In this document: positions 16,017-32,620 of the stretch, in pieces
Numbering within the stretch: position 1 is the first letter of the stretch
Layout of the letters: each line of letters opens with the position of its first letter
Source of the DNA: a virus
Direction: 5' to 3' (one strand)
DNA length: 39,788 nucleotides
IMG/VR virus record: IMGVR_UViG_3300030906_000182
Location: 1 to 39,788 of that record
Made by a program: the position numbers and the translations under genes
Notes under the pieces: model-generated
What the model saw: the letters and a program-made list of their open reading frames with translations, nothing else
Databases searched by the model: none
What the model was told of the DNA's origin: nothing

Positions 16017-16025
16017 GTTAGTTCC
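15917..16025 (-). repeat. 109-bp perfect direct repeat, copy 1
   Basis: Bases 15917-16025 are identical to 17437-17545, 1520 bases apart and in the same orientation. The copy includes the translation start region and the first 34 codons of the short fibre gene. Homologous recombination between the copies would delete the long fibre and connect the upstream gene to the short one without breaking the frame. Confidence 0.95.
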
Positions 16026-17536: not shown

Positions 17537-17545
17537 GTTAGTTCC
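17437..17545 (-). repeat. 109-bp perfect direct repeat, copy 2
   Basis: This is the second copy of the repeat at 15917-16025. It covers the stop of the small upstream gene, the GTG start and the first 34 codons of the long fibre. No mismatch was found in a base-by-base comparison, which points to a recent duplication or to gene conversion that keeps the copies equal. Confidence 0.95.
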
Positions 17546-17901: not shown

Positions 17902-19374
17902 TCATACCGTAACGGAAATGTTGCCCGCCGAAATGGTCGGCTCCTGATCAATGCCCATTTGCAAACTGTTCGACGCGGGCGTGCTGGTGAAGCCGATGAA
18001 AATCGACAATATCTCGACCTCTGCGCCGATCGCCGACACCACGCCATAGAACTGCGAGGCGAGAATGAGCGCCCCGCACCGCGCGCGTAGATTCCCGTTC
18101 GTGCCGTTGAACTGCGCAATGATGGCTTGTTGCACTAGCGGCACTATGTTCGACGGTAGCAATATATTCGACTGCAGCGTTACCGCGAAATAAATCGGCG
18201 TGTCCGCCGGATTGATGTACGTGACTTCATACGAGGGTATCGGATTGCTGTAGCCGCTCGTGTCCTGCACGGTTTCGCTGACGAGCGTCGCGCCCGCCGT
18301 GCCTTGCTGCGCGCCGGCAATGGCGCCGGACGCCACAGTCCCCGAGGTTGATACGTTCAGGGTGCCGGTGCCCGTCGCGGGCGTGTAGGTGCCGTAAGAT
18401 GTCACCGTGGCTGTGCCCGTATCGACAGCGCCGGTTAGCGTCATACCAGGCAGAATGTAGCCGCTCGTGGTCGCACTGATTGTGACGACGCCCGCCGCCT
18501 GCGAGCCCGTGCCGACGAAAGACGGCTGATAGGCGCACCCTACGTTGGTTGCCGCCCATATGGCGTTCGCGACCGCTTGCGCCGCGCCGCCCACAACGGC
18601 GATATAAACCGAGTTCGGCGCGACGGGAAACGATGTCGCATTCGGGTTGCCGGCAATGGTGCCGGTGACAACCGACCCCGTATTGTTTTGCGTCACGAAA
18701 ACGTCGATAACGCCCGGCACGTCGAAACACGCGGCGTAAATCGCCGGTAGCGAGCCTTGACTGTTCAAGCCTACCGACTGCTTGCGGCGGTACTCGAATG
18801 CTTGCGGCGACTCGACGGCGGCGCCTGTGACGCCCGCCCCTGAATTGTTGACCGATTCCCACCCGGGGATAGCCTGGTAAATCTGCGTGACCGTATTCGC
18901 GGGGCACGGGGTTGGACCCGCCGTGACGTTCGCGAATGCGAGCGTAATCGAGCCGCCGATGGGGATGCTGCCCGCCTGCGTACAGGCGTAGACGTTTCCG
19001 CTCGTATCCTGAACGAGCGCGCCCACGGGGATGGGTGTCCCGAACACGCCGACGCACTGGCAATTGACCGTCGTGGCGATTGCGGGGTTGCGCGTCAGGA
19101 AGTAAATGCGTGCGATGGCGTCTTGCATAAACCCCGTGGCGGTGTCCGGGTCTACCTGATTGACGAACGTCGCGAACACGGTGTCAGCATTCGCGATAGC
19201 CGCCGCGGTACTCGAGCACAACTGACCTTGCGGCGTGTTGAGCGCCGGATTCAAATTGCCGCCGAACGCCGCGTTATAGTCCTCTTGCACGCCCGCGAGA
19301 ATCGCCGCCTCGGTCGGGATGACTAGCCCCGTTGGAGTGAATACCGGCGTAGGTACGTTGGTCGTGTCGGTCAT
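17902..19374 (-). CDS. Baseplate J-like protein with an inserted beta domain
   Basis: This 490-residue protein matches the gpJ/gp47-like baseplate family. The N-terminus has PTEAAILAGVQEDYNAAFGG and NTPQGQLCSSTAAAIANAD, then RNPAIATTV, and the central part has ESPQAFEYRRKQSVGLNSQG with PGVIDVFVTQN. Between about residues 283 and 352 there is an insert (GVVTISATTSGYILPGMTL, VTSYGTYTPATGTGTLNVST) closely resembling an insert in the sheath. The usual C-terminal part resumes with YEVTYINPADTPIYFAVTL. Its start overlaps the gp25-like gene stop (ATGA). In the particle it links the wedge to the fibres. Confidence 0.88.
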   Translation of the reverse strand: MTDTTNVPTPVFTPTGLVIPTEAAILAGVQEDYNAAFGGNLNPALNTPQGQLCSSTAAAIANADTVFATFVNQVDPDTATGFMQDAIARIYFLTRNPAIATTVNCQCVGVFGTPIPVGALVQDTSGNVYACTQAGSIPIGGSITLAFANVTAGPTPCPANTVTQIYQAIPGWESVNNSGAGVTGAAVESPQAFEYRRKQSVGLNSQGSLPAIYAACFDVPGVIDVFVTQNNTGSVVTGTIAGNPNATSFPVAPNSVYIAVVGGAAQAVANAIWAATNVGCAYQPSFVGTGSQAAGVVTISATTSGYILPGMTLTGAVDTGTATVTSYGTYTPATGTGTLNVSTSGTVASGAIAGAQQGTAGATLVSETVQDTSGYSNPIPSYEVTYINPADTPIYFAVTLQSNILLPSNIVPLVQQAIIAQFNGTNGNLRARCGALILASQFYGVVSAIGAEVEILSIFIGFTSTPASNSLQMGIDQEPTISAGNISVTV

Positions 19375-19727
19375 ATAGAAACCGTCTGCGTCTGATGGCT
19401 CGAATCTGTAAAGAGCACCTGCCCGGTTGTCTCACGTGTCGTCGCCGAATACGCCTCGATGATGCACGTCGCCGAAACGACATCAGGCACCGTCAACGCA
19501 GCGGCAACAAACTGCTCTTGAAATATCGCAGCCGGCGGCGTCTTGCCGAACAACTGCCCAAAATAGTCTACTCCAAGCGAGACATTGTAGTATACCTCGC
19601 CCAGAACCGTACGGCAGGCAGATGCCACGTCCTGCGCGAGCGCGTAAGGCTCGGCTGCGACAGCGATGTTACCGTCCGCGTCAAGCGTCAAATCCCACAG
19701 CCCAACGTCTAAAAGTAGTGTGTTCAT
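19371..19727 (-). CDS. Baseplate wedge protein, GPW/gp25-like
   Basis: This 118-residue protein has the pattern of small wedge subunits: LLDVGLWDLTLDADGNIAVA, then AYALAQDVASACRTVLGEV-type helices (AEPYALAQDVASACRTV) and YYNVSLGVDYFGQLFG. It lies directly before the gpJ-like gene, to which it is coupled by an ATGA overlap, and directly after the spike gene, the same order as in other contractile-tail phages. It would help form the baseplate ring that triggers sheath contraction. Confidence 0.8.
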   Translation of the reverse strand: MNTLLLDVGLWDLTLDADGNIAVAAEPYALAQDVASACRTVLGEVYYNVSLGVDYFGQLFGKTPPAAIFQEQFVAAALTVPDVVSATCIIEAYSATTRETTGQVLFTDSSHQTQTVSI

Positions 19728-20449
19728 ACTGGAGGCCCTGTATCGCCGCCGCCGGTTGCGACGCCCGAGTGTACGTGTGTTCCGAGTTCGACGGCGCCCT
19801 GTTTCACGGTGCCGCCGGTAAGATCGCCCGTGACGGCCAGCGAGCCCGAGAACGACCCCGCGCCGCCGCCCGTCTGCGTGACCGTGCCGGCTATGCTCAC
19901 GTCACCATCGAGGATGATTTCCGGGGCTGTAATCGTGACCGTGGTCGTCGCCGTGATGGCGACCGCGAACGGGCTCATAACGGTAATTCCCGTGGCGTTG
20001 AACTGTACATACTGGGCCGGTGCGCCGTTCAACATCCCGCCGATATAAACGGCGTCCGCCCAGTCGAATGTCCGCGCGCTGCCCGGGTTCGCTTGCGCCT
20101 TTGAGTTTTTGACGTTCGTTATATCGCGCGAGCAGAACCCGCACAGCCCGATATCGCCCGCCACGGGGTCGATAATGATGGCGTTCGTGCCGCCCTGCAC
20201 GCGCAGGTACGGCACCTGATAGATGTCGCCGTGCTGTACTGCCTGCCCGTTGCCGGTCAGTAGATTCACGAGAACTTTCACCGTCACGGTGCCTACGGGC
20301 GCGACGCCGCCGTCGTTTGAGCACGACTGAATCTCGACAATCGAGAGCGTCTGCACGCGCGCGAGCGCCGCATTGATTTGTAGCTGGACTGTGTTGTAAT
20401 CCGTCGTGTCTGCGACGGCCGACGCGAGCCCATACCCCGGAACATTCAT
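19724..20449 (-). CDS. Baseplate spike protein, gp138/gpV-like
   Basis: This is 241 residues from the ATG at 20449, which overlaps the upstream stop; the extra 19 codons upstream are not needed. Residues about 25-120 fit the OB-fold domain of gp138/gpV-like spikes (VEIQSCSNDGG, HGDIYQVPYLRVQGG, IIIDPVAGDIGLCGF). The C-terminus is a beta-helical shaft (AVAITATTTVTITAPEIILD, SIAGTVTQTGGGAGSF) that ends with LGTHVHSGVATGGGDTGPP, a typical tip whose HVHSG sequence could coordinate a metal. It would pierce the outer membrane. Confidence 0.85.
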   Translation of the reverse strand: MNVPGYGLASAVADTTDYNTVQLQINAALARVQTLSIVEIQSCSNDGGVAPVGTVTVKVLVNLLTGNGQAVQHGDIYQVPYLRVQGGTNAIIIDPVAGDIGLCGFCSRDITNVKNSKAQANPGSARTFDWADAVYIGGMLNGAPAQYVQFNATGITVMSPFAVAITATTTVTITAPEIILDGDVSIAGTVTQTGGGAGSFSGSLAVTGDLTGGTVKQGAVELGTHVHSGVATGGGDTGPPV

Positions 20450-21387
20450 TGCGCCCCCGTGGCTACAGCGAGCGATGGCGGCGAGAGCAGCAAATCTGAA
20501 AACCATGCGCCGTTCGGTGTTAGCGCCTCAATCGTATTCGTGACCGACGACACGAACCACTCACCGTTAGCCGTGGAATTTAGCGACGTAGGCACACCGT
20601 TGTTATCGATGACCGACGTACTGCCTTGAATCGTCACGGGGGATTTCACGTGATAGGCAGGGTTATACAACGCCCGCGCAGTGAGTCGCCCGTTAGCTTG
20701 CGGGACGGGATTCGCCACGAGCCCGGTTTGAGGCGTCAGGATGATAGGCGCATCGGAATCCGGTTGCCCTTTCGGGGACACGGTAATGCCCGTATTGGTG
20801 CCGTTCGGGGTCGGGTCCAAGTTGTACGCCGCGCAGACCGCGCGCAACTGGTCTGTGAGGCTGCCGGAATAGTAGACCGCGCCGCCTGTCGAGCCCGTCA
20901 CGCCGTTATTAATGAACGCTTGCCCCATCTTGCCGATGATGACCGACAGCACGTCGGCAACTGCCGCGCTCGAGGGGAAGTTGGTAATCGTGGCGGGGGC
21001 GACCGAATCGTACACGCCCCACATGGACGTAACCACGAGGGGGACATCCGGCTGCGCAGAGTAATCCGTCGCCGCTGTCAGGATGTTGCCGGCGTACGCC
21101 GCCGCCCATCCGTCGCCCCCGTTCGCCTCAACCAGCACGCTGTTCGGCAGGTAGCCGGTCTTGCCGAACTCCACGACTTGCACCGCCAGGGCGTTCATGT
21201 CCTTGAGCGCCATGCCATATATTTTGATGGTTGCGGACGGCCACGCAGGATACCCGCCGCCGACAATCGTAGCGGACATGCGCAGCCCCGTAAGCTGCAA
21301 CTGATTCGCGGTCGTACCCGGGAACACGGCGTTGCTGCCGTTCAGCGTGAACGTCACCCGCATTTGTTTGTTGAGATTAAGGGCCAC
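20446..21387 (-). CDS. Baseplate hub protein, gp27/gpD-like
   Basis: This 313-residue protein precedes the spike gene and matches the expected hub in size and place. It opens MALNLNKQMRVTFTLNGS, has LRMSATIVGGGYPAWPSATI and IKIYGMALKDMNAL segments that suggest a tube-like barrel, and a later SLTDQLRAVCAAYNLDP helix followed by strands. The last 20 residues are variable. It overlaps the plug gene at its 5' end. The hub joins the tail tube to the spike. The assignment rests on gene order and beta-barrel-like patterns. Confidence 0.7.
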   Translation of the reverse strand: MALNLNKQMRVTFTLNGSNAVFPGTTANQLQLTGLRMSATIVGGGYPAWPSATIKIYGMALKDMNALAVQVVEFGKTGYLPNSVLVEANGGDGWAAAYAGNILTAATDYSAQPDVPLVVTSMWGVYDSVAPATITNFPSSAAVADVLSVIIGKMGQAFINNGVTGSTGGAVYYSGSLTDQLRAVCAAYNLDPTPNGTNTGITVSPKGQPDSDAPIILTPQTGLVANPVPQANGRLTARALYNPAYHVKSPVTIQGSTSVIDNNGVPTSLNSTANGEWFVSSVTNTIEALTPNGAWFSDLLLSPPSLAVATGAQ

Positions 21388-21760
21388 TGGTATACCCGAT
21401 TGCCGCTAAGTCGGACTGCCCGAGATAGAGCAACACGAACTGCGCGCCGAGCCCCGTGTAATACGGCGGCGCCCCGTTGAACGTGGGCGGGCCGCCCTGC
21501 GTCGCGAGGGTGTCGAGAAACATAAATTCGCCCGCCACGCCGAGGTATTGCCGGTCCTGCAGGATGGGCGTCCTATCCAGGCACCGCGCCGTATTGATGA
21601 TGAGCACGCCGTTTACGGTTAAATCGAAAAAAAGCCCCGCTGCGACGCCATACTCGTCAACGATGGGTTCCCTTTGGTAGACCGCTATTTGGCAATTCTG
21701 CCCGTCAAGTGTTATTGAAAGCGTCTGTGAGGGAACGGCGTTTAGTGGAATTTGCAGCAC
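21377..21760 (-). CDS. Baseplate plug protein (DUF6983-like)
   Basis: This is a 127-residue protein. It begins MLQIPLNAVPSQTLSITLDG followed by QNCQIAVYQRE, then FFDLTVNGVLIINTARCLDR, RQYLGVAGEFMFLDT and YYTGLGAQFVLLYLGQSDL. The NAVPSQTL and YTGLG...LLYL elements match my memory of the phage baseplate plug family. It lies between the Dit-like and hub genes, where the plug is expected. It would help close the central channel of the baseplate before infection. Confidence 0.75.
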   Translation of the reverse strand: MLQIPLNAVPSQTLSITLDGQNCQIAVYQREPIVDEYGVAAGLFFDLTVNGVLIINTARCLDRTPILQDRQYLGVAGEFMFLDTLATQGGPPTFNGAPPYYTGLGAQFVLLYLGQSDLAAIGYTSGP

Positions 21761-21764
21761 GGGG

Positions 21765-22520
21765 TTAACCTGTCGGCACGGGCGGCGCGATAGCCGCGAG
21801 CGCGGATGACTGGACGGCGCTCGAGGGCACGGACGGCGCGGTCTGTCCGTTGTTCGCCGTCGGTATCGCGGAGGGCACGGACGAATTAGACAGATTCGTG
21901 GACGTGCTGGAATAGACCGCCGTCGCGTCGATGACCTCTACGAAAAACAACTCGACGTCGAAATACGCGAAGTTCCCGGCGCCGCGGCGCGAGAGTTCCG
22001 CGCGCGTGCATACGACGTTGGGGTACGATTTCTCCGGTGTGCGGATGGTGTACATCGTGGACAAATCGTTAACGACTGCATCGACCGTCTGTAGGAACGC
22101 GGTGCGCTCGGACAGCGAGCCGCCCTTCGTGAGCGTCACGGAGTTTTCAAACGGCACAATAACCTTGTTGTAGCTGGCGAACTGCCCTTGCTGAATCTGG
22201 TAATTCGAAACGCGGTACTCTTGCCGCCAGCCAAAATCCGTCACGCTGTCGGGGATTATCGCCTGCACGCCCGGCGATGCACCGAACCCAAAATCGGGTG
22301 TCGCCTGGGTGAACACGCCCCATACGGGCGCCGCTTGCGTAGATTGCCACAAGGCGCCGCTGGTCGCCTGCGTGCCGATTGTAGGCGGCGCGCTCGTGGG
22401 GGCCAGCAACGAGCGGGCAAGCTGCGGCACGCCGAGAAGCGCGGGCACGTTCGGGAACGGCGGGGTAGCCACGGTTATGGGAATGCCGAGCCCTGCGCCC
22501 CACCCTTGAGTGATTATCAC
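21765..22520 (-). CDS. Dit-like baseplate/distal tail protein
   Basis: This 251-residue protein starts with GTG in a GTGA overlap with the tape measure stop. The core is residues 92-205: DSVTDFGWRQEYRVSNYQIQ, ASYNKVIVPFENSVTLTKGG, AFLQTVDAVVNDLSTMYTI, VVCTRAELSRRGAGNFAYFD and VELFFVEV. This pattern is that of Dit-like proteins next to tape measures of contractile tails. Both ends are Pro/Ser-rich and probably flexible. It would form the ring on which the hub and tape measure end. Confidence 0.72.
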   Translation of the reverse strand: MIITQGWGAGLGIPITVATPPFPNVPALLGVPQLARSLLAPTSAPPTIGTQATSGALWQSTQAAPVWGVFTQATPDFGFGASPGVQAIIPDSVTDFGWRQEYRVSNYQIQQGQFASYNKVIVPFENSVTLTKGGSLSERTAFLQTVDAVVNDLSTMYTIRTPEKSYPNVVCTRAELSRRGAGNFAYFDVELFFVEVIDATAVYSSTSTNLSNSSVPSAIPTANNGQTAPSVPSSAVQSSALAAIAPPVPTG

Positions 22521-24013
22521 GACTGCCCCGCATTGGCTTGCGCGACCGTCACTTTACGCTGTATCGCGTCCGCCGCTTGGTCCGCAACGGCTGCCGGGTC
22601 GGCGCGCGAGGAATTAACCGTTATCTGGTCTACCCGCACGTTCACGGTGCCGCCGCCCGCACCGCCCGCCCCCGTGCCGTTGCTGCCCGTGCGTGGCGGC
22701 AGTGAGGGTGTCGCGCCGTTCGGCGTGATAGCGCGAAGCTGCCGGTCGGATACGCCCGCCTCCTGCGCGCTCATGGCCGTAATGAGCGCCGGTATGTCAG
22801 CCGCGGTAAGCTTTGCGTTCCGGTCCTTGCCTAGCGACTTCGCGACGCGCGCGATGTACGCCTCAGTATCGGCGGGATGCTTCATGGCGTCGGTGCCTTC
22901 GTACGCCGTAATTAACTTCGATATCGTGTCATTGCCTCGCTTAAGCTTGCGCTCGACGTTCCCTTGCATCGCCTCGAGTCCTTCCGCCGCGGTCGCAAAT
23001 ATGCGGAACCCGTTGATATCACTCCGTTGACCGGGCAGCGCTTTGATGTTGCCTGGGTTGTTATTTTTCGCCGCGAGGCTCTTTGGTTTCTGCGAGAAAA
23101 TGAAACTGATAATCTTGCCTAGGTCGCGGCCAAACGTCCCGTTCACGAGGCTCTCGGACAGTTCCCCCGACCCCTCGATGATGGTCTGTTCGATGGGGCG
23201 AACGAAGTCGCCAATTTTAGCGCCGAGCTTATCGCGCCGCCCCGCCGCTTCCGCCTTTACGCGCTCTAAATCTTCTGCCGCTTTCACACGCGCCAAGTCT
23301 GCGATGACTAGCTTTTGCGCAATGTCGAGTTCCTCTTTTTGCTTCTCGAGCGACTCGTTAAATAGATTGATGAGCCCTTCGGCAATTCCCCCGCGCGCGA
23401 GCGTGGCTGAGCGTGTCTGCTCATCCAAGCCCGCCACGCGGGCGGATAGACCCCGGAATATCGTACCGATATCGAGGAGGTTCCCTTTCAAGTCGCGATA
23501 GGGCACGCTGAATTGCTGTAGGAGGGTGAGCAACGGACCGGGCGTCCCGCCCACGGTCTTAAGCTGCTGGAACTCCTTGACTAGCTCGCTTACCGTGGCT
23601 GTGACATCCTCAGCCTTGCCGCCGGCAAGCTCGGCGGCTTTACCCCACGTGTCGAGCGCGGCAGGGTCGACGCCTAAGCGGGTCGCTGTGCGCCCCTTCG
23701 CGGCGAGGGCTTCGTTCATATGCGACAGGTACTCGAGGCCGCCCTTAATCGTCTCAAAGCCGATGACGGCGCCTATCAGCGTGCGCCCGAGATTCGCTAT
23801 CGCGCCCGTCGTGCCGTCGATGGATTTCTTGCGGTCCTGCTCCTCGAGTTTGAGTTTGCGGGCGCGCTCGCGCTGCTCTGCGTCATTTTTCTTGTTGACC
23901 GTATCGCGCTTTTTCTGCGCTTGCTGGTCGAATTGCTCAACGTCTTTCCACGAACGTTTGTAGTCGTCCGGGTTAAGACCGAGTTCTACTACGAGGGCAT
24001 CAATTACGGTCAT
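22517..24013 (-). CDS. Tape measure protein with C-terminal muralytic-like domain
   Basis: This 498-residue protein is helical and charged near its start (QQAQKKRDTVNKKNDAEQRE) with one hydrophobic stretch (NLGRTLIGAVIGFETIKGGL), both normal in tape measures. It follows the tail chaperones. Residues about 308-415 look like a lysozyme/transglycosylase-related module: NNNPGNIKAL, GFRIFATAAEGLEAMQ, ISKLITAYEGTDAM, TEAYIARVAKSLG, PALITAMSAQEAG. Such modules cut peptidoglycan while the tail tube passes. It is short for a tape measure, implying a short tail. The ATG overlaps the end of the frameshifted chaperone. Confidence 0.83.
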   Translation of the reverse strand: MTVIDALVVELGLNPDDYKRSWKDVEQFDQQAQKKRDTVNKKNDAEQRERARKLKLEEQDRKKSIDGTTGAIANLGRTLIGAVIGFETIKGGLEYLSHMNEALAAKGRTATRLGVDPAALDTWGKAAELAGGKAEDVTATVSELVKEFQQLKTVGGTPGPLLTLLQQFSVPYRDLKGNLLDIGTIFRGLSARVAGLDEQTRSATLARGGIAEGLINLFNESLEKQKEELDIAQKLVIADLARVKAAEDLERVKAEAAGRRDKLGAKIGDFVRPIEQTIIEGSGELSESLVNGTFGRDLGKIISFIFSQKPKSLAAKNNNPGNIKALPGQRSDINGFRIFATAAEGLEAMQGNVERKLKRGNDTISKLITAYEGTDAMKHPADTEAYIARVAKSLGKDRNAKLTAADIPALITAMSAQEAGVSDRQLRAITPNGATPSLPPRTGSNGTGAGGAGGGTVNVRVDQITVNSSRADPAAVADQAADAIQRKVTVAQANAGQS

Positions 24014-24640
24014 GTCGGGTTATCTCGCGCCTGTTGAAAGCGTCGACCGAGATAACTTCTACGAGGTCGAAGGCGTCTCTTACGCCATAATCGGATTGTA
24101 ATTCCGCGAGCGTCGCGAGTCCACCGCTAATAATCATCCCGCAAAGAGGCGGCAGATTTACGTAATTGAGCAGCCCGCGAGGGCGGTCGAGGAACAGGCT
24201 TACCCCGTAGTCGGGGAACTCGCGGGCAACGTAAAACCCGTGTGGAGCGTCCACGCAGCCTTGTAGAGCGTCAGAAACGTAGTGATTTCCTCGACCGGAC
24301 CGTTGCCGGCTGAATCGGGTATCACGTCCGCGAGCGGCAGCTTCGGCTTGTGCTCGTACTTGACGGTCGCTAAGAGCTCGTCGAGCAGGGGCTTTAAATC
24401 CACGTGGGAAGCCCCCAGAAGGGCGCCAAACGCGAACGATGCCAGGGCGCCCCATCCGGCGCCGAGCGCGCCCACGGGTAACTGCGCGCCGCTGCGGGAC
24501 AAGGCGAGCAGGGCACGGAGCGCCCAGTCCTGCCCGGCATAGGCGGACATCTCGGTCAAGATGAATACCTTGCCGTTATCGCGCTCGCCGAGGGTTTCCG
24601 AGCGCACGCCCGGAATAGTCAGCCGTTCAGTACGACGCAT
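24000..24640 (-). CDS. Tail assembly chaperone fusion made by -1 frameshift
   Basis: The predicted product joins codons 24640-24233 to the -1 frame from 24233 to 24000, 213 residues in all. The extra 77 residues (YVAREFPDYGVSLFLDRPRG, PPLCGMIISGGLATLAELQS, DYGVRDAFDLVEVISVDAFN) show the G-ATL-EL-DYG-DAFDL pattern expected of the second chaperone. They have no start codon of their own in a suitable place. This gpG/gpGT-type pair occurs in most long-tailed phages. The end overlaps the tape measure ATG. Confidence 0.82.
24173..24239 (-). promoter_or_regulatory. Programmed -1 ribosomal frameshift signal
   Basis: The slippery site GGGTTTT occupies 24239-24233 and is in the correct phase (G GGT TTT). 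After a 5-base spacer there is a 9-bp perfect stem, GCCCGCGAG at 24227-24219 pairing with CTCGCGGGC at 24181-24173. Inside its loop is a second hairpin, CCCCG (24216-24212) with CGGGG (24207-24203). Heptamer, spacer and structure all match known -1 signals. Confidence 0.88.
24200..24640 (-). CDS. Tail assembly chaperone, frame-0 product
   Basis: This is 146 residues from the ATG at 24640 (GGAG about eight bases upstream); the frame open to 24793 is not used. It carries RRTERLTIPGVRSETLGERD, then KVFILTEMSAYAGQDWALRA, an Ala/Gly-rich helical region, and KPLLDELLATVKYEH. The ERDNGKVFILTEM phrase is typical of phage tail chaperones that lie between tube and tape measure genes. It should bind the tape measure during tail assembly. 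Near its end the gene carries a GGGTTTT slippery heptamer that allows part of the ribosomes to make the longer fusion listed separately. Confidence 0.85.
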   Translation of the reverse strand: MRRTERLTIPGVRSETLGERDNGKVFILTEMSAYAGQDWALRALLALSRSGAQLPVGALGAGWGALASFAFGALLGASHVDLKPLLDELLATVKYEHKPKLPLADVIPDSAGNGPVEEITTFLTLYKAAWTLHTGFTLPASSPTTG

Positions 24641-24706
24641 TCGGGAAACTCCAATTTTGAGACGTGGTTCGCGGAGTGTAGCGCAGTGGCGCGGTATCGT
24701 ACAGGA

Positions 24707-24937
24707 ATGGTGAACAAACCCGGCTTTTACGTCACGTGCATAGACCCGGAAACCGATAGGCGCGCAGCGCTCGCGGGACCGTTCGATACTCACGACGAGG
24801 CGTTAGCGCGCGTTGACGAGTGCCGACGGTCGGCCTGCGAGAAGTATCCGGCGGCTCATTGGTATCAGTTCGGAACCGCGCGGCTCACATTCTGCCAACG
24901 CGAGTCTGAGCCTTGCCGCCGAGAATCTGCGGCGTGA
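24707..24937 (+). CDS. Small protein on the opposite strand of the tail operon
   Basis: This gives 76 residues from the ATG at 24707 (or the GTG at 24710, better spaced from ACAGGA). The protein reads like a compact alpha/beta domain: KPGFYVTCIDPETDRR, LAGPFDTHDEALARVDECRR and HWYQFGTARL. I recall a family of short phage proteins with the PGFYVT...GPF-TH-EAL...H-Y-FGTAR pattern. It is the only rightward gene inside the 29-kb leftward late block and fills a gap that has no minus-strand gene. Its end overlaps the tail gene at 24885-24937. It may be a separately expressed moron; the function is unknown. Confidence 0.6.
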   Translation: MVNKPGFYVTCIDPETDRRAALAGPFDTHDEALARVDECRRSACEKYPAAHWYQFGTARLTFCQRESEPCRRESAA

Positions 24938-25088
24938 CTTTGATTACGCTAGCGCCGCTTTTGCGGTCGGCAATCTCTTGCATCATTTCGGGCGTACCGC
25001 GGCCGGCGGCAACGGCTTTTTCCAAATCGGCAAGCGTGTAGGAGGGGTACCTACGGTCCATAGCCAACTCGTAATCCCGGGCAATCAT
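24885..25088 (-). CDS. Small helical protein between tube and chaperone genes
   Basis: This 67-residue protein is coupled to the tube gene by an ATGA overlap. It contains YPSYTLADLEKAVAAGRGTP and EMMQEIADRKSGAS, a helix pair common in short phage proteins preceding tail chaperones, and a basic C-terminus (KAQTRVGRM). It overlaps the plus-strand gene by 53 bases in a convergent arrangement. A role in tail assembly is likely from the place alone; no motif supports more. Confidence 0.6.
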   Translation of the reverse strand: MIARDYELAMDRRYPSYTLADLEKAVAAGRGTPEMMQEIADRKSGASVIKVTPQILGGKAQTRVGRM

Positions 25089-25516: not shown

Positions 25517-25524
25517 GATTTTCC

Positions 25525-27285
25525 TTAGAGAACGTCAACAGACGACATTGAGATTTTCTGCACGCTGCCGCCGTCCGTGTACCACAGATTGATGGTCGGC
25601 GAGCCGCGTCCGCCGCGCACGATGGCGCCCGGGTCGAGAATCTGTAGATACCATCCGGTGTTCTGAATCGTCGCCGTCGCGCCCGCGTCGCCCGTCGCGG
25701 TGTTGAGCGCTGCCGACTGAGTGCCGGAAAGCGTCACGCCCGCCACGATGGTGCCGAAGTAGAGCGCCGCCGAGATGGGTCCGGTCGGCGGACTGTTGCC
25801 GCTCGCCGCGCTGCCCACGAGAGCCGAGCGAATCAGGTTGTAACCGCGGGTCACGTACGGCACCGCCGGCACGGTCTGCAAGAGCGTCATTAGCGCAAGC
25901 TGTAGGCTCGCGTTCAATTGAATCTGCCCTATGTACGTATCCGCCCATTCGAACGGTCCGGAAATCTGTCCGGGCTGGTTCTGCGTGAATTGCTGGTTCG
26001 CCGTGGCGAACGCGGCGTAGCAGTTGTACCCGTTCGCAATCAGGTTGTCGTAAACGGTCTGGTTCGTGACTTGCGCGGCTAGCCCGGACTGCCCGCGGAA
26101 CGCGAACATCGTGCGCCCGTTCTGTTGCTGGTAATTGACACTCGCCGCGATGGCGCATTGGAACGCCGCCAGCACGCCCGTGCCGCTGATGTCGTACACG
26201 GGCATTACGCCCGTGTCGTTCGCGGCGTTCACGATGTTGCCGAACGATCCGGTAGCGTCCGGGCTCGTCGTCGGGCTCGAATCGCTGTCCTGACACACGT
26301 ACAGGTAACGCTGATTCGTGGTCTGCACCCACGCGGCGAATGCTTCCTTGTTGCCGAGCGTCTGCTCGGAAACGGTCATGAAGGTAGCCCAGTTCTGCGT
26401 GGCAGCCACGACGGCGCCCATGACGCCCGCCGGGGTATTCGCTGCGGCGCCCTGCGACGTGACCGCGCCAGCGGCGGCGGTAAGCTTGAGCCCCGTCGCA
26501 AAGCTGTCCGTTGTCGGGAAACCAATGGTTGACACGACGCCCGTTCCGAGCCCGTCGGTAATCACGAAAGCATCCCGCAGCGTGTCGTATGTCACGAGCG
26601 CCGAGCCCGCAACGGTGGCGGTACCACTCGAAACGGTCGCCGACGTGCTCACGTTCACGGTGCCGGTGCCGGCGACCGTAGTGTAGGTGCCGAACGACGT
26701 GATAGTCGCCGGACCGCTAACGCCCGTACCCTCGAGCACGTTGCCGACGGCGAGTTCACCTGACGCGGTAGCCGAGATTGTCACGACGCCCGCAGATTGC
26801 GACGCGGTGCCCGAGAATACCGCCGTGCTCGACTGCAGTCCGGCTTGAATCAGCGAAGCGGCGTTCGTGAACGACGTGGCGCCAGAAAGGTTAATTGCCG
26901 CCGAAGTATTCGGCTGCCCCTCAATCGACAGCGTGAGGGTGCCCGACAGCGCTTGAAGTTGCGCCAGGGAGAGACTAGCGACACTCGCGCCACGCAGGTA
27001 CGCCGCCACGGGGGCGGTGTTGAACTGCACGAAATAGAGCGTGCCCGGCAGGGTGGTGCAATTGTTGTAGCCTGCGAAATAGACGTTCGCCAGGACCGTT
27101 TCCGGCGCCGCGGGTCCGAACCAATCCGACACGTCGACGGCGTTCGCGAAAGGCTGCGCCACGCCGATGGGAATCGAGGGGTCGCCGGTCAAGAAAACCG
27201 CATTGAGCGATAGCGGATTTCCGCCCGCGCCTAGCACGCCGGGAATGACATTGGCAAGAGCCGAGGCGGGTATTGATGGCGGCAT
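25525..27285 (-). CDS. Tail sheath protein (DUF3383-like) with inserted beta domain
   Basis: This 586-residue protein matches the DUF3383 sheath family. Visible parts are the N-terminal LSLNAVFLTGDPSIPIG, TVLANVYFAGYNNCTTLPGT, the middle WATFMTVSEQTLGNKEAFAA, then FAFRGQSGLAAQVTNQTVYD and NLIANGYNCYAAFATANQQF, and a conserved C-terminus (GWYLQILDPGAIVRGGRGSP). At about residues 155-222 lies an insert (GVVTISATASGELAVGNVLE, TITSFGTYTTVAGTGTVNVS) also found in the gpJ-like protein. The insert probably sits on the outer face of the contractile tail. This gene shows that the phage is a myovirus. Confidence 0.92.
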   Translation of the reverse strand: MPPSIPASALANVIPGVLGAGGNPLSLNAVFLTGDPSIPIGVAQPFANAVDVSDWFGPAAPETVLANVYFAGYNNCTTLPGTLYFVQFNTAPVAAYLRGASVASLSLAQLQALSGTLTLSIEGQPNTSAAINLSGATSFTNAASLIQAGLQSSTAVFSGTASQSAGVVTISATASGELAVGNVLEGTGVSGPATITSFGTYTTVAGTGTVNVSTSATVSSGTATVAGSALVTYDTLRDAFVITDGLGTGVVSTIGFPTTDSFATGLKLTAAAGAVTSQGAAANTPAGVMGAVVAATQNWATFMTVSEQTLGNKEAFAAWVQTTNQRYLYVCQDSDSSPTTSPDATGSFGNIVNAANDTGVMPVYDISGTGVLAAFQCAIAASVNYQQQNGRTMFAFRGQSGLAAQVTNQTVYDNLIANGYNCYAAFATANQQFTQNQPGQISGPFEWADTYIGQIQLNASLQLALMTLLQTVPAVPYVTRGYNLIRSALVGSAASGNSPPTGPISAALYFGTIVAGVTLSGTQSAALNTATGDAGATATIQNTGWYLQILDPGAIVRGGRGSPTINLWYTDGGSVQKISMSSVDVL

Positions 27286-27351
27286 AATTACGGATTCCGT
27301 TGAAAGTGCGACCTACGTCACGCTGATGATACGATTATGACCGGGGATAGT

Positions 27352-27921
27352 CTAGCCCGGCGGGGCGAACCCGCCGCCCGGGGTAACGTCCACGAGGTCG
27401 ACCGGACCGAGCTCTACGGCGTATTCCTGCGCGGTCGTAACTTGCGGGTTGTATTGGATACGAGCCGTCACTATCCAGCGGTCCTCGTACTGAGCCTCGG
27501 CGTTCGTGAGCGGCGCGCGAATGGGGTCGTCCGCATAGAGCGGCTGGCAGTGCGGCGCCAAGGCGAGGCACCCGACGTTATCACGCAGCAACGTCGTCAA
27601 GATGTCTGCCCAATTCGAGGATATCGGGCCGTAGCAATCTAGCTGCACGTCGACTTGCTGCCCCTGCTCGCTGACGACGGGGCCGGGCGCGGGCGGGTCG
27701 CTGACCGTCGCCGAGTAGGTGTCGACGTTGGTACGGAGCCGTTTCTTGCTGATGGCGTACATGACCACGAAGCCCGCCGCGGCGTTCGCGGGCATCGCCA
27801 CGCGGTTCGGGTATCCCTGAATAACCTGCCCGCTCGCTAGCCCGAGTTGCGTCGTGATGAACGTGCCGAGCGCCGTGTAGACATCGGTCAGGGTGTTAAT
27901 GATTGTGGCGGGAACGCTCAT
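27352..27921 (-). CDS. Tail terminator / neck protein (gp12-like)
   Basis: This 189-residue protein precedes the sheath gene. It opens with ATIINTLTDVYTALGTFITT and has ASGQVIQGYPNRVAMPANAA, VVMYAISKKRLRTNVDTYS, QQVDVQLDCYGPISSNWADI and EDRWIVTARIQYNPQVTTAQ. This set fits the neck/tail terminator proteins I recall as LIC_12616 or gp12-like. It would cap the tail and meet the head connector. A CGGCGGG/CCCGCCG stem at the gene end has no T run and is part of the GGGFAPPG coding region. Confidence 0.75.
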   Translation of the reverse strand: MSVPATIINTLTDVYTALGTFITTQLGLASGQVIQGYPNRVAMPANAAAGFVVMYAISKKRLRTNVDTYSATVSDPPAPGPVVSEQGQQVDVQLDCYGPISSNWADILTTLLRDNVGCLALAPHCQPLYADDPIRAPLTNAEAQYEDRWIVTARIQYNPQVTTAQEYAVELGPVDLVDVTPGGGFAPPG

Positions 27922-28322
27922 GGCGTGTCGGTCTGCAGGACGACAATCAGTTTTGTCCAGCCCTTGTATTCAACGTTCCACGGTCCCGCGACGTAAATCA
28001 CTTTCCAGTTCTGCACCGCCTCGCCCTGGAATGTCACGAATTGCAGCAAGTCGCCGCCCTTCGCCTGCACGCGGACGATAGCTTGCGGGTTCTGGAATAG
28101 GAACACGGTGCGGAAAACGCCCTGCAGGTTGAGGGCGTCAACGTGCTTCAACTCCTCTTTACCGAGCGGCTGCGCTTGGATGCGTACCTGCACGGGCGCG
28201 GCATACTGCGGCGTCTGCGAGTAATCGGCGTTCACGGTGGCGCCGAGGCTCGACAGGTACGTCGCAACTATGTCGGGGTTCACGTAGTTGATTGCCCCGC
28301 GGACGATGCCGTGCAGATTCAT
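27918..28322 (-). CDS. Head completion or neck protein, unassigned family
   Basis: This 134-residue protein sits between the gp10-like gene and the tail terminator and overlaps both (ATGA). It appears beta-rich: AINYVNPDIVATYLSSLG, YAAPVQVRIQAQPLGKEELK, FLFQNPQAIVRVQAKGGDLL and EYKGWTKLIVVLQTD. Position and size suggest a stopper or head-tail connector component. No strong family motif allows a finer name. Confidence 0.65.
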   Translation of the reverse strand: MNLHGIVRGAINYVNPDIVATYLSSLGATVNADYSQTPQYAAPVQVRIQAQPLGKEELKHVDALNLQGVFRTVFLFQNPQAIVRVQAKGGDLLQFVTFQGEAVQNWKVIYVAGPWNVEYKGWTKLIVVLQTDTP

Positions 28323-28762
28323 TTCTTGACCTCGTAATCCACGGCGCGTTGCATGTCGCCTTTGTCCACGAGAGGCTTATCGAATCCTTTACGCTTCACC
28401 GTCGACGGCGCGTTACCAGGCGTCGACCATTGCGCGATGCTGTTCTCTACGTCGTCGCGCATGGATTGTCCGAGCAGCCCGAGCGCTTGCGGTCCGTCGT
28501 AGTTCGTGGCTTTCAGCGCGGCGCCGAGTTTCTTCCCCCAGTCCTTCGACTGCTGCGCTATGGTCGTCCGGAAGAACGGACGCGGCGGTGCCGAGCGGGT
28601 GCCGAACTCGTTCCAAAAAGCTTTCTGCGCGTTCGATGTTCCCGTCGGGTCTTTCGACCCCTCGAGGAATCCCACGCGCAGCACGCCGCCGCTCGTGATT
28701 TTCTGCTCGAGCGCGCCGAGCGCGAGGTGCATTTTCTTACCGCCGATGATTTTAGAACCCAT
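28319..28762 (-). CDS. HK97 gp10-like neck protein
   Basis: This is 147 residues from the ATG at 28762, which overlaps the adaptor gene end by 11 bases; the longer frame to 28840 is Arg-rich. Features are KKMHLALGALEQKITSGGVL, RVGFLEGSKDPTG, FWNEFGTRSAPPRPFFRTTI and DGPQALGLLGQSMRDDVENS. The NEFGT...PPRPFFR pattern is diagnostic of gp10-like minor tail/neck proteins. It likely helps join head and tail. Confidence 0.82.
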   Translation of the reverse strand: MGSKIIGGKKMHLALGALEQKITSGGVLRVGFLEGSKDPTGTSNAQKAFWNEFGTRSAPPRPFFRTTIAQQSKDWGKKLGAALKATNYDGPQALGLLGQSMRDDVENSIAQWSTPGNAPSTVKRKGFDKPLVDKGDMQRAVDYEVKK

Positions 28763-29531
28763 ACGGTCCGCCGCCCGGCGTGAAGGGACCGAACCCCGCG
28801 CCGCCAAACGGCGAATAGGAGGCGGGCGGCGCCGGCACAAAAACCGCCGTGCGGAACTTCGCGGTCATCGTATAGTACTGCGCGCCATACTTCGTTTGAA
28901 TGTAATACGCCTGACCGGCGTTCGGCGGGGCTTCCCACGCTGCCGACACCGAAACATCGCCCTCGCTCGCGTCCGAGATGCGCCCGACCACGCCGAGCGG
29001 CTGTACGATGTTCGGCGTCCCGGTGACAATCATCGGCTCGAGCGTGACGGGCGACCCGTACGTCGTGCTGAGCGTGTACGTACCGACGCCGCCCGTACCC
29101 GTCCCGAGCGCGGTAATGATGGCGCCGCCCGGCACGAGCAGCGAGCCGCCCACGCTAGGACCGTCGTATAGCGATGAGCCGACGGCGAGCGCGCCGAGCA
29201 GCACGGACGCGACGGTCAGGGTCGCCCCCGTGACCGAGCCCGAACCGCTGAATACTGGCGAGCCGATGCCGTAGTCGTTCGACCCTTGCGCGATAGCCGT
29301 AATGTGCGCCGTGAGCAGATACAGCAATTGCAGCCGTGTGTTTGCATCCTGCACGCGCGAGCAGCACGAATTATTGAGCAGCAACGTCGCGCTCGCGAAG
29401 TTATTGGCGAGCGCGGACGGCGCCGCGATATTGATGCCCGTAAATTCCGGGTACGATGATAGGAACTCGGCGGCGCTGAATTGCACCAAACCGAAGACCG
29501 GATTAATCGTCGCACACGGAACTACGGGCAC
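28752..29531 (-). CDS. DUF4054-like head-tail adaptor with inserted beta domain
   Basis: This 259-residue protein starts with GTG, with GAGGAG about eight bases upstream. The first 90 residues (VQFSAAEFLSSYPEFTGINI, LQLLYLLTAHITAIAQG) and residues 178-235 (GVVGRISDASEGDVSVSAAW, YIQTKYGAQYYTMTAKFRTA) fit DUF4054, the all-helical connector adaptor. Between them, about 95-170, is a beta-rich insert (LTVASVLLGALAVGSSLYDG, ALGTGTGGVGTYTLSTTYG) like those of the sheath and cement proteins. DUF4054 proteins are usually about 130-150 residues, so the insert explains the extra length. The end is Gly/Pro-rich. Confidence 0.8.
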   Translation of the reverse strand: MPVVPCATINPVFGLVQFSAAEFLSSYPEFTGINIAAPSALANNFASATLLLNNSCCSRVQDANTRLQLLYLLTAHITAIAQGSNDYGIGSPVFSGSGSVTGATLTVASVLLGALAVGSSLYDGPSVGGSLLVPGGAIITALGTGTGGVGTYTLSTTYGSPVTLEPMIVTGTPNIVQPLGVVGRISDASEGDVSVSAAWEAPPNAGQAYYIQTKYGAQYYTMTAKFRTAVFVPAPPASYSPFGGAGFGPFTPGGGPYGF

Positions 29532-29536
29532 GCTGG

Positions 29537-30010
29537 TTACTCCTCAGTCTCGGTCTTTTTCTTGAAGTCAGCTTCGGTAATCCCTTTCACGCGAGGGTCC
29601 GACTTGCTGAGCGGCGCGAGCACGGCGGGCGTTTTCTCGCTGTCCTTGATTTGAACTGCCGCGCTCGGCTCGTCCTCCGCTTCAAACAGGATGCCGTTCC
29701 GTAGCAGCCATGAACGCGGATGCTCCTTTTTCCACTGCTCCCAGAACGCGCGCGGCACGCCCCGGTTCAGGTACGGTCGCGTGTCCATGCCGTGCGGCAC
29801 GTCCGGCGCATTGCCGGATTTCAGCATCGCCACCCGCATGGGATATGAGTGCTGGTTCCACCCGTGCATGGTGTATGTCTCATAAGCCGCCGTCTTCTCG
29901 AGGTGGGTCACAGTCTTGCCGTCCTCGTTTTTGCGGGTCGTCAATTGCCCGATTTCGAGCTTCATTCCCGCGGGCGCCTTACACCCGATTATCAAAAAAT
30001 CCTTAGCCAT
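29537..30010 (-). CDS. Conserved-looking head region protein of unknown function
   Basis: This 157-residue protein has a good GAGGAG ribosome binding site. It begins KDFLIIGCKAPAGMKLEIG, has a MHGWNQHSYPMRVAMLKSG segment, and a DTRPYLNRGVPRAFWEQWKK stretch with many aromatic residues, then an acidic-basic C-terminal tail (DFKKKTETEE). It lies between the second cement-like gene and the adaptor. A role in the head or neck is inferred from place only. Confidence 0.65.
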   Translation of the reverse strand: MAKDFLIIGCKAPAGMKLEIGQLTTRKNEDGKTVTHLEKTAAYETYTMHGWNQHSYPMRVAMLKSGNAPDVPHGMDTRPYLNRGVPRAFWEQWKKEHPRSWLLRNGILFEAEDEPSAAVQIKDSEKTPAVLAPLSKSDPRVKGITEADFKKKTETEE

Positions 30011-30027
30011 TGTCGTTACTCCTCAAG

Positions 30028-30627
30028 TCAAGTGGTGAAAATCGCCGCCGATGAAACCAAAGCAAGTTGCCCGGGCGGTGAGGTCGAGCATACCAAAAAC
30101 GGCGTCAGTTCGGCGTTTGATGCCGCATTGCTGATCGCCGAGCCGTCCACGAGGGACGCATAGACGGGCTGCCCGTACAGCGCGCCGCCGGGGAATCGCA
30201 GCCAGAAATTACCGCGCGAGTGCAGCGTCACGACAAGCCCGGGGCGCACGCGCAGCCCGCCGCACGGCGTGACGGTCGGGTCCCAGAACTGCCACGTCCA
30301 CGCGGACTGCGGACCCGCGAGCGCGCGCGGACCGCCTACTACACCTCCGTTCGCGCCATTGAGCGAACGGAGCGGGATGACCACGCCGAGGGCGTCGGAG
30401 GCGTCCACGCGGGTGTTATTGACCAGCCCCGACGCAGAGTTCAGCCAGCCGAACCGACCTTGAATTGTGCCGGGTGAGTTTGAGCGCGGCGCACCGGGAC
30501 CGCCCGTGACCGAACGGAACGGGGCGCGCGCCTCGAGGTTTTGCGCGATGGGCGGCGATGCGAAAGCGCCCTCGTAAGCTCCGGAGAGACTGACGAGGGC
30601 GCCGTTTGCGGAAGGACAACAGCCCAT
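30028..30627 (-). CDS. Head decoration/cement-like protein, paralogue of the 31703 gene
   Basis: This 199-residue protein shares a core with the cement protein two genes upstream: GRFGWLNSASGLVNN, LGVVIPLRS, then GLVVTLHSRGNFWLRFPGGA and VYASLVDGSA, against NFAWVGPAGQ, IGFLGRNEQ, GFMVTLFNGGDFWAYFAGGA and VYADEDTGA there. It lacks the added beta domains. Flanking the capsid gene on both sides, the pair looks like two versions of the gp24-type structural cement. The ATG has no strong ribosome binding site. Confidence 0.68.
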   Translation of the reverse strand: MGCCPSANGALVSLSGAYEGAFASPPIAQNLEARAPFRSVTGGPGAPRSNSPGTIQGRFGWLNSASGLVNNTRVDASDALGVVIPLRSLNGANGGVVGGPRALAGPQSAWTWQFWDPTVTPCGGLRVRPGLVVTLHSRGNFWLRFPGGALYGQPVYASLVDGSAISNAASNAELTPFLVCSTSPPGQLALVSSAAIFTT

Positions 30628-30640
30628 GGCGGGCGGGCGA

Positions 30641-31675
30641 TTAGGCCCCCAGGAAAGACGACACGCCGACGGGCATGTAGTAGATGGTGCCCCAGGTGCC
30701 CTGCGACTTCTTCTGCTCCCACGAGCTGGTCTTCGTCACGATGGCGTGAGCGCGCATCTTCTCGGTGAAAGCCGCCTCGACAACCTTCTGTCCCTCGATG
30801 CTCTCCACGATGAGCTGCACGAACTCGGTGCCGTCCGCGTTGCCGCCGCCGTTAATGGCGAACTCCGGCACCTGAACAATCTTCAGGTTGGGGAAGTTCG
30901 TCTTAATCTGCGTATACACGTTCACGTTGTAGGTGTTCGTGTTGTTCAGATTCACGGCATTGCCGGGCGAGATGCCGAGCGAAAACGCGCTCTCGGCGTT
31001 CACGAGACCCTGCGTGTTGATAATAATTTCCTGCACGAGTCGCAGGATGTCCGCGTAAATCACGGCGCCATCGGCACCGAACCATGTGGACGTCGGCGCC
31101 AAGCTGGCGGGCAGCGACGGGTCGTTCGTGCCGCCGTAGCACTGCAGCCCGCTGATGCCGTACAGATACGTGAAGTTCTGGTACTTCTTGAGGGTCAGCG
31201 CGGAAGCCATGTTGACTTGGTTCGCCCAATCGACCTTCGCCTCGCTGGCACGCGCGAGCTCGCGCTCGCCCCAACGGGTGTTTGTCTGGTAGTGGTAGCT
31301 CTGCCGCTGCGGGAAATTGATGTTCGCATTGGACATTCCGTCCTGCGAGAAATCGCCGTAGCTCGACACTTCGCCGGTACGTTCCGCTTGGATGAACATG
31401 GCGGTATCGGACACCCATGTGCCTTTCTTCGTCTCGCCGTAGAGCTCCGCAGCCTTGACCGGCGCAATCACAATTTCGATGATTGCCGGGTCGACGTAGG
31501 TCGTGAACAGCGAAGGAATGCCCGCGTTCGCCTGGGTGATCAGCGTCGGCTGCGCATCGTACGCAATCTCGCGATCCATGAGGACCATTCCGCGGGCTTC
31601 CTGAGCCAACCCCGACATGAAATGGATTCCCCATTTACGGCCGAGTGCGGCGTGATCGATAGCAATGCGCTTCAT
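30641..31675 (-). CDS. Major capsid protein (DUF2184-like)
   Basis: This 344-residue protein matches DUF2184 capsids in length and motifs: GRKWGIHFMSGLAQEARGMV, DREIAYDAQPTLITQANAGI, PSLFTTYVDPAIIEIVIAP, GETKKGTWVSDTAMFIQAER, YGDFSQDGMSNANINFPQRQ and NTRWGERELARASEAK. AGGA lies six bases before the ATG. It should adopt the HK97 fold and form the icosahedral shell. It follows the protease, scaffold and cement genes in the usual order. Confidence 0.93.
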   Translation of the reverse strand: MKRIAIDHAALGRKWGIHFMSGLAQEARGMVLMDREIAYDAQPTLITQANAGIPSLFTTYVDPAIIEIVIAPVKAAELYGETKKGTWVSDTAMFIQAERTGEVSSYGDFSQDGMSNANINFPQRQSYHYQTNTRWGERELARASEAKVDWANQVNMASALTLKKYQNFTYLYGISGLQCYGGTNDPSLPASLAPTSTWFGADGAVIYADILRLVQEIIINTQGLVNAESAFSLGISPGNAVNLNNTNTYNVNVYTQIKTNFPNLKIVQVPEFAINGGGNADGTEFVQLIVESIEGQKVVEAAFTEKMRAHAIVTKTSSWEQKKSQGTWGTIYYMPVGVSSFLGA

Positions 31676-31702
31676 GTTCGTGTGTCCTGTTTCGTCGAAA
31701 AA

Positions 31703-32620
31703 TTAAGCAACCGCGTGGGTGATTTTGGCAACGCCCGCCCCGGTCAGCGAGACGGGTCCGACCGTCCAACCGCTCGAGATGTTCGTAGGTCCGGTAATCG
31801 TCTCGGACGCAGTGTTGACCGGGACGCTGCCGGGAATCAGCAGCCCGTAGGTGCCGATACCGCCGGTTCCGGTGATGAAACTGGCAATCTGCGTCCCCGC
31901 GGTCACGTTGGTACCCGAGATGGTGTCGCCAATCGACAATCCGCCGTCGGCAACCGCCGTGATGTTCAACACGCTGGAGGCGGTCGTAATCGCCTCGGTC
32001 GACTCCGTGGTCGGAACTGCGCTCAAGCTGTAGACCGCGCCGATGGCGCTCGGCGTGCCGCTCACGAGGCCCGTGATGGTCGTTCCCGACACAACGCCGG
32101 TGCCGCTCACAACATCGCCAATCGTGACAATGCTCGCGCCGGTCACGGTGACGAGGGTCAGTTGACCCTGCCCGCCGACGGTCGCCAGCGACCCGGTGCC
32201 GGTGAAGCCAATCGACCCGGTGAAACTGTTGGTCGCCTGCATCTGCGGGGCACCAGTATCTTCGTCAGCGTAGACCGTGGCGAGCGCCGTTGCGCCGCCC
32301 GCGAAGTACGCCCAGAAGTCGCCGCCGTTGAATAGCGTGACCATGAACCCCTCGGGCACTACGAGCGAATACTCGCCGAGATATTCGGTAATGAGCGCCT
32401 GCTCATTGCGTCCCAAAAAGCCGATTTGCCAACCGCTCACGTAAGACTGCGACACCTGTCCGGCGGGCCCTACCCATGCGAAGTTTCCGACCGTGAGGCC
32501 GCCCGCGGGGGCGACTAGGCCGCCCGGCGCAGTCAGGACCGAAGAGAACGGGTTCGTGCTCGCGAAGTCGCCGGCAACGCCGGGAGCCTGTACGAGATTA
32601 ACTTTTGACTGAAAGGGCAT
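31703..32620 (-). CDS. Structural cement protein (gp24-like) with two added beta domains
   Basis: The first 135 residues of this 305-residue protein form the cement core (GLTVGNFAWVGPAGQVSQSY, SGWQIGFLGRNEQALITEYL, EGFMVTLFNGGDFWAYFAGG). Two tandem beta-rich domains follow, about 138-212 and 214-285, each with a GxxVSGT-type turn and the TGTGGIGTYGL or IGAVYSLS strand, like the inserts in sheath, gpJ and adaptor proteins. Its leader (CAGGACGCACGAACATG) resembles that of the capsid gene. It likely locks onto capsid hexamers and displays the extra domains outside. Confidence 0.78.
   Translation of the reverse strand: MPFQSKVNLVQAPGVAGDFASTNPFSSVLTAPGGLVAPAGGLTVGNFAWVGPAGQVSQSYVSGWQIGFLGRNEQALITEYLGEYSLVVPEGFMVTLFNGGDFWAYFAGGATALATVYADEDTGAPQMQATNSFTGSIGFTGTGSLATVGGQGQLTLVTVTGASIVTIGDVVSGTGVVSGTTITGLVSGTPSAIGAVYSLSAVPTTESTEAITTASSVLNITAVADGGLSIGDTISGTNVTAGTQIASFITGTGGIGTYGLLIPGSVPVNTASETITGPTNISSGWTVGPVSLTGAGVAKITHAVA

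What the first reader, a model, noticed from the sequence alone, without database searches (positions are those of the whole stretch)
17902..32620. One beta-rich domain inserted in four different virion proteins
Similar 65-75 residue segments occur in the gpJ-like protein (about 283-352), sheath (155-222), DUF4054 adaptor (95-170) and twice in the cement protein. The sheath and gpJ copies share GVVTISAT, SFGTY/SYGTY and GTGTVNVST/GTGTLNVST, and are similar in DNA too. The host proteins are unrelated, so the domain seems to spread within the genome, perhaps giving the whole particle a common surface that binds glycans or mucus.
Basis: partly seen in the sequence, partly recalled or inferred. 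Interest (0 to 1): 0.65.

Follow-up and report, generated by a model that had tools for sequence, protein, structure and literature searches.

The report
Mobile barrel domain coating phage particles
One small, uncatalogued barrel-shaped protein module has been inserted again and again into the outward-facing proteins of an environmental bacterial virus and many of its relatives, so that much of the virus particle probably displays the same module, perhaps to help it stick to surfaces.

Summary
The same ~65-residue domain occurs once in the sheath, gpJ-like wedge and DUF4054 adaptor and twice in the cement protein (first cement copy weak alone). A profile built only from unrelated proteins of other phages recovers four of the five copies. 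The domain folds with high confidence (pLDDT 92) into a small beta-barrel. It has no Pfam, NCBIfam or PDB sequence match and is known only as a segment of two large PHROGs. At homologous sites relatives carry 0, 1, 2 or 3 copies; cultured relatives have insert-free sheaths, and the insert falls exactly in a short loop of the E217 sheath. Relatives carry it also in the neck terminator and a head protein, where the window lacks it; unrelated phages have it in adaptors, head-closure proteins and fibres. Among relatives it is confined to outward-facing virion proteins (0 of 75 tail-tube, 0 of 55 capsid homologues) and is under purifying selection. A fully supported clade mixes sheath, gpJ and cement copies, so it has moved between genes, but not recently: DNA similarity is only what protein identity predicts. 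Best reading: a horizontally mobile virion-surface module, working like phage Ig-like domains but with another fold. Adhesion is plausible and untested.

The parts
26602..26832 (-). barrel domain copy in the tail sheath (DUF3383), sheath residues about 152-228
   Evidence: family profile 60 bits, independent profile 24.5 bits; AF2 model pLDDT 92 alone and above 90 within the sheath; lies in the loop between residues 150 and 157 of E217 gp31
18307..18534 (-). barrel domain copy in the gpJ-like baseplate wedge, residues about 281-356
   Evidence: 54% identity to the sheath copy over 87 residues, E 3e-16; 61% over the profile columns; E217 gp44 homology stops where it starts
29049..29267 (-). barrel domain copy in the DUF4054 adaptor, residues about 89-161
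   Evidence: 46.6 bits, 35.8 bits with the independent profile; splits the DUF4054 Pfam match in two
31796..32008 (-). barrel domain copy 2 in the cement protein
   Evidence: 59.5 bits, 40.6 bits independent
31985..32170 (-). barrel domain copy 1 in the cement protein (divergent)
   Evidence: 21.4 bits, E 1.2e-4 with the family profile; 5.8 bits with the independent profile
25525..27285 (-). host protein: tail sheath
   Evidence: Pfam DUF3383 E 7e-107, PHROG 205 tail sheath
17902..19374 (-). host protein: baseplate wedge, gpJ-like
   Evidence: Pfam Baseplate_J, PHROG 6, E217 gp44
28752..29531 (-). host protein: DUF4054 adaptor
   Evidence: Pfam DUF4054, PHROG 302
31703..32620 (-). host protein: capsid cement (XM1 gp53 / E217 gp24 type)
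   Evidence: Pfam XM1_gp53_minor_capsid E 4e-18 and Phage_cement E 1e-8
27352..27921 (-). neck terminator: lacks the domain here, carries 1-2 copies in 30 of 76 relatives
   Evidence: family from NCBIfam LIC_12616_fam
27918..28322 (-). head/neck protein (phrog_1912 type): lacks the domain here, carries it in one relative (L055)

Best explanation
A horizontally mobile, independently folding beta-barrel domain of about 65 residues has been inserted into surface loops of several unrelated outward-facing virion proteins (cement, sheath, baseplate wedge, neck adaptor; in relatives also neck terminator and a head protein), so the outside of the particle displays the same module, perhaps several hundred to over a thousand times if E217-like copy numbers apply (inference). 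It has moved between genes of the same phage lineage and between phages, and purifying selection keeps it. Most likely it works like the phage Ig-like domains: weak, many-valued contact with cell-surface or matrix polymers that keeps particles near hosts. Shown: homology, predicted fold, gain and loss at fixed sites, confinement to outward-facing proteins by gene identity, purifying selection. Inferred: actual surface display and adhesion.
For: Independent profile recovers the copies. High-confidence barrel model, pLDDT 92.4. Same site with 0-3 copies in sheath relatives. Presence: sheath 69/80, gpJ 32/46, neck terminator 30/76, adaptor 16/57, cement 45/46; none in tube (75), capsid (55), hub (58), spike (54), tape-measure (54) homologues. 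Insert maps to the six-residue loop of the E217 sheath. SH-aLRT 100 clade of 26 copies mixing sheath 16, gpJ 8, cement 2; 27 host changes, minimum 7. Sheath and gpJ copies are more alike within a genome, 0.50 against 0.42, none of 5,000 permutations. Insert dN/dS 0.09-0.25, close to the core. Other phages carry it in adaptor and Hc3 together, 57 loci; a bacterial GH5 cellulase and a secreted Bacteroidota protein carry it too.
Against: No binding data. Few charged residues (about 2.7 per copy) and almost no Trp; the near-invariant residues are four turn-type glycines and a threonine, so no conserved binding site is evident. Surface position rests on homologous structures and a single-chain model, not on this virion. 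The domain tree has only 67 columns and many unresolved forks. No different-gene pair in one genome reaches 75% DNA identity, so no transfer is caught in the act.
Confidence: 0.55

Rival explanations
1. Structural role: the barrels contact neighbouring subunits and stiffen the sheath, capsid lattice and neck, rather than contacting the environment.
For: Additional sheath domains have been proposed to stabilise the tail (PMC9230969); cement proteins are stabilisers; the neck is a mechanical weak point; purifying selection.
Against: Clean absence at the same site in sheath relatives, including L048 nested among carriers, and copy number varying 0-3 do not suit a geometric lattice contact; the same module in unrelated symmetries and in a bacterial cellulase argues against one interface.
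Confidence: 0.2
2. Passive coat: a low-charge, hydroxyl-rich shell that lowers non-specific sticking or shields the particle, without a ligand.
For: Inserts hold 3-5% charged residues against 9-20% in the host cores, and 66-74% Gly/Ser/Thr/Ala/Val; no conserved surface site is evident.
Against: Low copy number sites (wedge, adaptor, terminator) would add little to a shield.
Confidence: 0.18
3. Neutral or selfish passenger: loops that tolerate a compact domain accumulate it by recombination with no benefit to the phage.
For: Repeated gain and loss, tandem copies, entry into many unrelated proteins.
Against: dN/dS 0.09-0.25 within inserts, close to the core; confinement to outward-facing virion proteins.
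Confidence: 0.05
4. Convergence: Gly/Thr/Ser-rich beta segments that only look alike.
For: Strong compositional bias; cement copy 1 and gpJ are weak against the independent profile.
Against: Scores above 2,000 shuffles of the same proteins for four copies, aligned motif order, one high-confidence fold from the mixed alignment, E 3e-16 between sheath and gpJ.
Confidence: 0.02

Closest known systems
Ig-like / FN3 domains on phage virions (Hoc, T5 pb6, lambda gpV, SPP1 gp17.1*)
   Same: Small beta domains added to capsid, tail and sheath proteins, horizontally exchanged, often dispensable, proposed to bind surface carbohydrates weakly (PMC8718954; PMC10385173; PMC9230969)
   Different: No curated Ig-like Pfam match above cut-off; predicted small barrel whose listed structural neighbours are elongation-factor, F1-ATPase and OB-type barrels; here inserted into up to five virion proteins of one genome
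Segments of PHROG 21413 (unknown function) and PHROG 38233 (tail fiber)
   Same: The consensus domain matches positions 402-465 and 558-622 at about 67 bits, i.e. the same domain
   Different: There it is an unnamed piece of one large protein family; not recognised as a mobile module
Insertion domain (InD) of the XM1 sheath, resembling the FliD D3 domain
   Same: A domain inserted into the sheath N-terminal domain and directed outward (PMC10457771)
   Different: XM1's insert resembles FliD D3; the barrel here appears to be a second insertion within that region (inference from sequence)
E1_FCCH (PF16190) and other small barrels
   Same: Similar barrel arrangement, Z about 5.9 to Uba1; an adjacent PF16190 domain in one bacterial carrier, L178
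   Different: PF16190 does not match the window at E <= 10; Z values are in the range of common arrangements
T5 Dit protein pb9 (its OB-fold domain, from memory) and phage Bridgette capsid chain 8eci_1
   Same: Virion proteins with a similar barrel, Z 5.6-5.7; Foldseek probability 0.93 for 8eci_1
   Different: No sequence support: the profile finds no phage chain in the PDB

Membership tests
The barrel-domain family defined here (includes segments of PHROG 21413 / 38233) | Significant profile match over the ~65-residue domain | tested here: met
   Four of five window copies with an independent profile; PHROG match of the DUF4054 copy and of the consensus
Phage Ig-like domains (Big, fn3, I-set) | Match to a curated Ig-like Pfam model above cut-off | tested here: not met
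   No hit above cut-off in window proteins or 50 copies; best is Big_6, E 0.16, in one copy
Phage Ig-like domains (Big, fn3, I-set) | Ig-like beta-sandwich fold | tested here: inconclusive
   Listed PDB neighbours are barrels, none named as Ig, but absence from that list excludes nothing
Phage Ig-like domains (Big, fn3, I-set) | Modular occurrence across unrelated virion surface proteins | tested here: met
E1_FCCH (PF16190) | Match to the Pfam model | tested here: not met
   No match in the window at E <= 10; none of 50 copies
Carbohydrate-binding module / OB-fold lectin | Demonstrated glycan binding or a conserved binding surface | not testable with these tools
   Sequence only: few aromatic residues, and the near-invariant positions are Gly and Thr
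DUF3383 tail sheath (host protein) | Pfam match and sheath fold | tested here: met
   E 7e-107; Z 32 to E217 and Pa193 sheaths

The most novel reading that the evidence does not exclude
A non-Ig mobile barrel domain serves as a common outer coat of whole virions: the same module on capsid cement, sheath, neck and baseplate of one particle, spread by gene-to-gene transfer within phage lineages, widespread in uncultured phages and so far missing from curated domain libraries because cultured relatives lack it.
Probability: 0.4. Interest if true: 0.75.

Novelty: new variant of a known kind. Interest (0 to 1): 0.6.

Why it matters
A common domain family of environmental phages is absent from Pfam, NCBIfam and the PDB by sequence, yet sits in most of the outward-facing protein families of these virions. 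Naming it would annotate many 'unknown' insertions, and the natural with/without pairs at one site (L048 against its neighbours) make the long-standing question of what decorative virion domains do directly testable.

Tried and rejected
Recent intragenomic DNA duplication: rejected (codon identity 19 against 17.1 expected; no different-gene pair at 75% or more DNA identity among 571). Native part of each family: rejected (cultured relatives' sheaths span about 480-505 codons). Neutral passenger: disfavoured. PF16190 membership: rejected by sequence for the window. BLAST census in cultured phages: uninformative, because the low-complexity filter masks half of the domain; only a spring-water myovirus 'portal protein' and a Sinorhizobium phage tail fibre appeared; plasmids gave nothing. 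Alignment-based collection scans failed for lack of conserved 7-mers; a consensus query was used instead. No paper with the motif or the domain was found. Relatives of the record could not be drawn by the genome search.

Full report
What was checked. The window is a 39,788-base virus record coding mainly on the minus strand for a contractile-tailed phage. The four proteins of the finding are a gpJ-like baseplate wedge (Baseplate_J), a DUF3383 tail sheath, a DUF4054 adaptor and a cement protein of the XM1 gp53 / E217 gp24 type. Outside the inserted segments they belong to unrelated families.

The copies are homologous. Sheath and gpJ copies align at 54% over 87 residues, E 3e-16. Because the domain is Gly/Thr/Ser-rich, I built a profile only from 165 copies in two other host families (SU10-type adaptors and Hc3 head-closure proteins of other phages). 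It recovers cement copy 2, DUF4054, sheath and gpJ at 40.6, 35.8, 24.5 and 13.2 bits; the best of 2,000 shuffles of the same proteins is 10.6 bits. Cement copy 1 scores only 5.8 bits there and rests on the family profile (21 bits), which includes window and cement copies.

What the domain is. Consensus (profile): [67 protein letters not shown]. AlphaFold2 on 50 copies gives pLDDT 92.4, pTM 0.81, all-beta. PDB neighbours are small barrels: elongation-factor type, F1-ATPase N-terminal, E1 FCCH, T5 pb9, Bridgette capsid chain; Z 5-7, so only a shared arrangement. In BFVD it matches many uncultured Caudovirales proteins at probability 1.00, including an HK97 major capsid protein, a Stf-like fibre, a P22 gp10-like protein and a protein J. 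No Pfam or NCBIfam model covers it; the PDB has no sequence relative; PHROGs holds it only inside phrog_21413 and phrog_38233.

It is an insertion, gained and lost. Among 79 related loci, sheath homologues carry 0, 1, 2 or 3 copies at one site. Two of the 11 apparent absences are a truncated (L031) and a split (L071) gene; nine are real. The sheath profile aligns to E217 gp31 residues 22-150 and 157-498, leaving the insert in a six-residue loop. L048, nested among carriers, lacks it. Cultured relatives (Acinetobacter, Klebsiella, Xanthomonas, Burkholderia phages and others) have sheaths of about 480-505 codons, i.e. without insert (the Helicobacter pametensis prophage's is 491 residues). E217 gp44 homology to gpJ ends where the insert begins, and the DUF4054 Pfam match is split around the insert.

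It is confined to the outside. Using each window gene as query over the relatives, carriers are sheath 69/80, cement 45/46, gpJ 32/46, neck terminator 30/76, adaptor 16/57 and one head protein, 1/74. None is found in homologues of the tail tube (75), major capsid protein (55), hub (58), spike (54), tape measure (54), scaffold (25) or protease (40); these last names are assigned partly by gene order. The window's own neck terminator and phrog_1912-type protein lack it, so the pattern differs from phage to phage. Published structures place the extra sheath domains away from the tube and the cement trimers on the capsid surface (PMC9230969, PMC10457771, PMC10329688).

It moves, but not recently. 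Domain copies cluster mainly by host protein (27 changes, shuffled mean 104), yet more than the minimum of 7 are needed, and a 26-copy clade with SH-aLRT 100 mixes 16 sheath, 8 gpJ and 2 cement copies and holds both window copies. Copies in different genes of one genome are more alike than between genomes for sheath/gpJ (0.50 against 0.42, none of 5,000 permutations) and sheath/cement (0.46 against 0.42), but not for sheath/adaptor or sheath/terminator. Part of this reflects clade structure. At DNA level nothing is recent. Presence changes at least 6 times for sheath, 5 for gpJ, 3 for adaptor and once for the neck terminator on the sheath-core tree.

It is kept by selection. dN/dS in inserts is 0.09-0.25, close to the host core.

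How wide it is. In the best 80, SU10-type adaptors carry mostly one copy and Hc3 proteins mostly two, in 57 loci together. In one genome per species, 34 loci were found, among them a Sulfuritalea contig with sheath, neck terminator and two other carriers, a Roseicella GH5 cellulase with two copies, and a Bacteroidota secreted protein with GEVED and sorting domains. So the module is not strictly viral.

What it does. The best-supported reading is a mobile virion-surface module that works like phage Ig-like domains, whose favoured role is weak carbohydrate contact, itself unverified (PMC8718954). Against a classical lectin stand the low charge and aromatic content and the lack of an evident conserved site. 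A passive coat or a stabiliser remain open. If E217-like numbers applied (204 sheath subunits and 180 cement trimers, PMC10329688), a particle could show over a thousand barrels; this is inference.

Relation to known work. Phage domain mosaicism has been surveyed systematically (PMC10684548), with tail fibres, tail spikes and endolysins as hotspots; sheath was not mentioned there. Additional, often Ig-like, sheath domains are described in PMC9230969. I found no description of this barrel family, but the paper library is incomplete.

Verdict. Observation confirmed; interpretation partly supported; a new variant of a known kind (promiscuous domains on virions), with a domain family that curated libraries lack.

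Noticed in passing
13663-15567 (-): A DUF2612 phage protein fused to an N-terminal Laminin_G_3 (ConA-like lectin) domain and three PASTA domains: an unusual mix of possible glycan- and peptidoglycan-binding modules on a baseplate protein.
   Followed up: no
15917-16025 and 17437-17545: A 109-base perfect direct repeat shared by two neighbouring fibre-like genes, encoding NVLKSAGGGGGGAPVTPGGASGTVQYNNAGSFGG; a recombination seam, recent duplication or assembly artefact.
   Followed up: partly
30028-30627 (-): A short cement-like segment (33 residues, 48% identity, E 2e-5) shared with the cement protein at 31703-32620, without the barrel domain; possibly a second, insert-free decoration protein.
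   Followed up: partly
17538-17864 (-) and 34485-34862 (-): Two paralogous small proteins at opposite ends of the structural region, 38% identity over 76 residues, both ending in TPGLGN.
   Followed up: partly
L165 6001-6195 (Roseicella) and L186 (Bacteroidota): The same domain in bacterial secreted proteins, including two copies C-terminal to a GH5 cellulase.
   Followed up: partly
L178 ORF 3208-8922, residues 859-918: An E1_FCCH (PF16190) domain directly before the barrel domain, ending in a similar FGTYTSGGT motif; a possible remote relative.
   Followed up: partly
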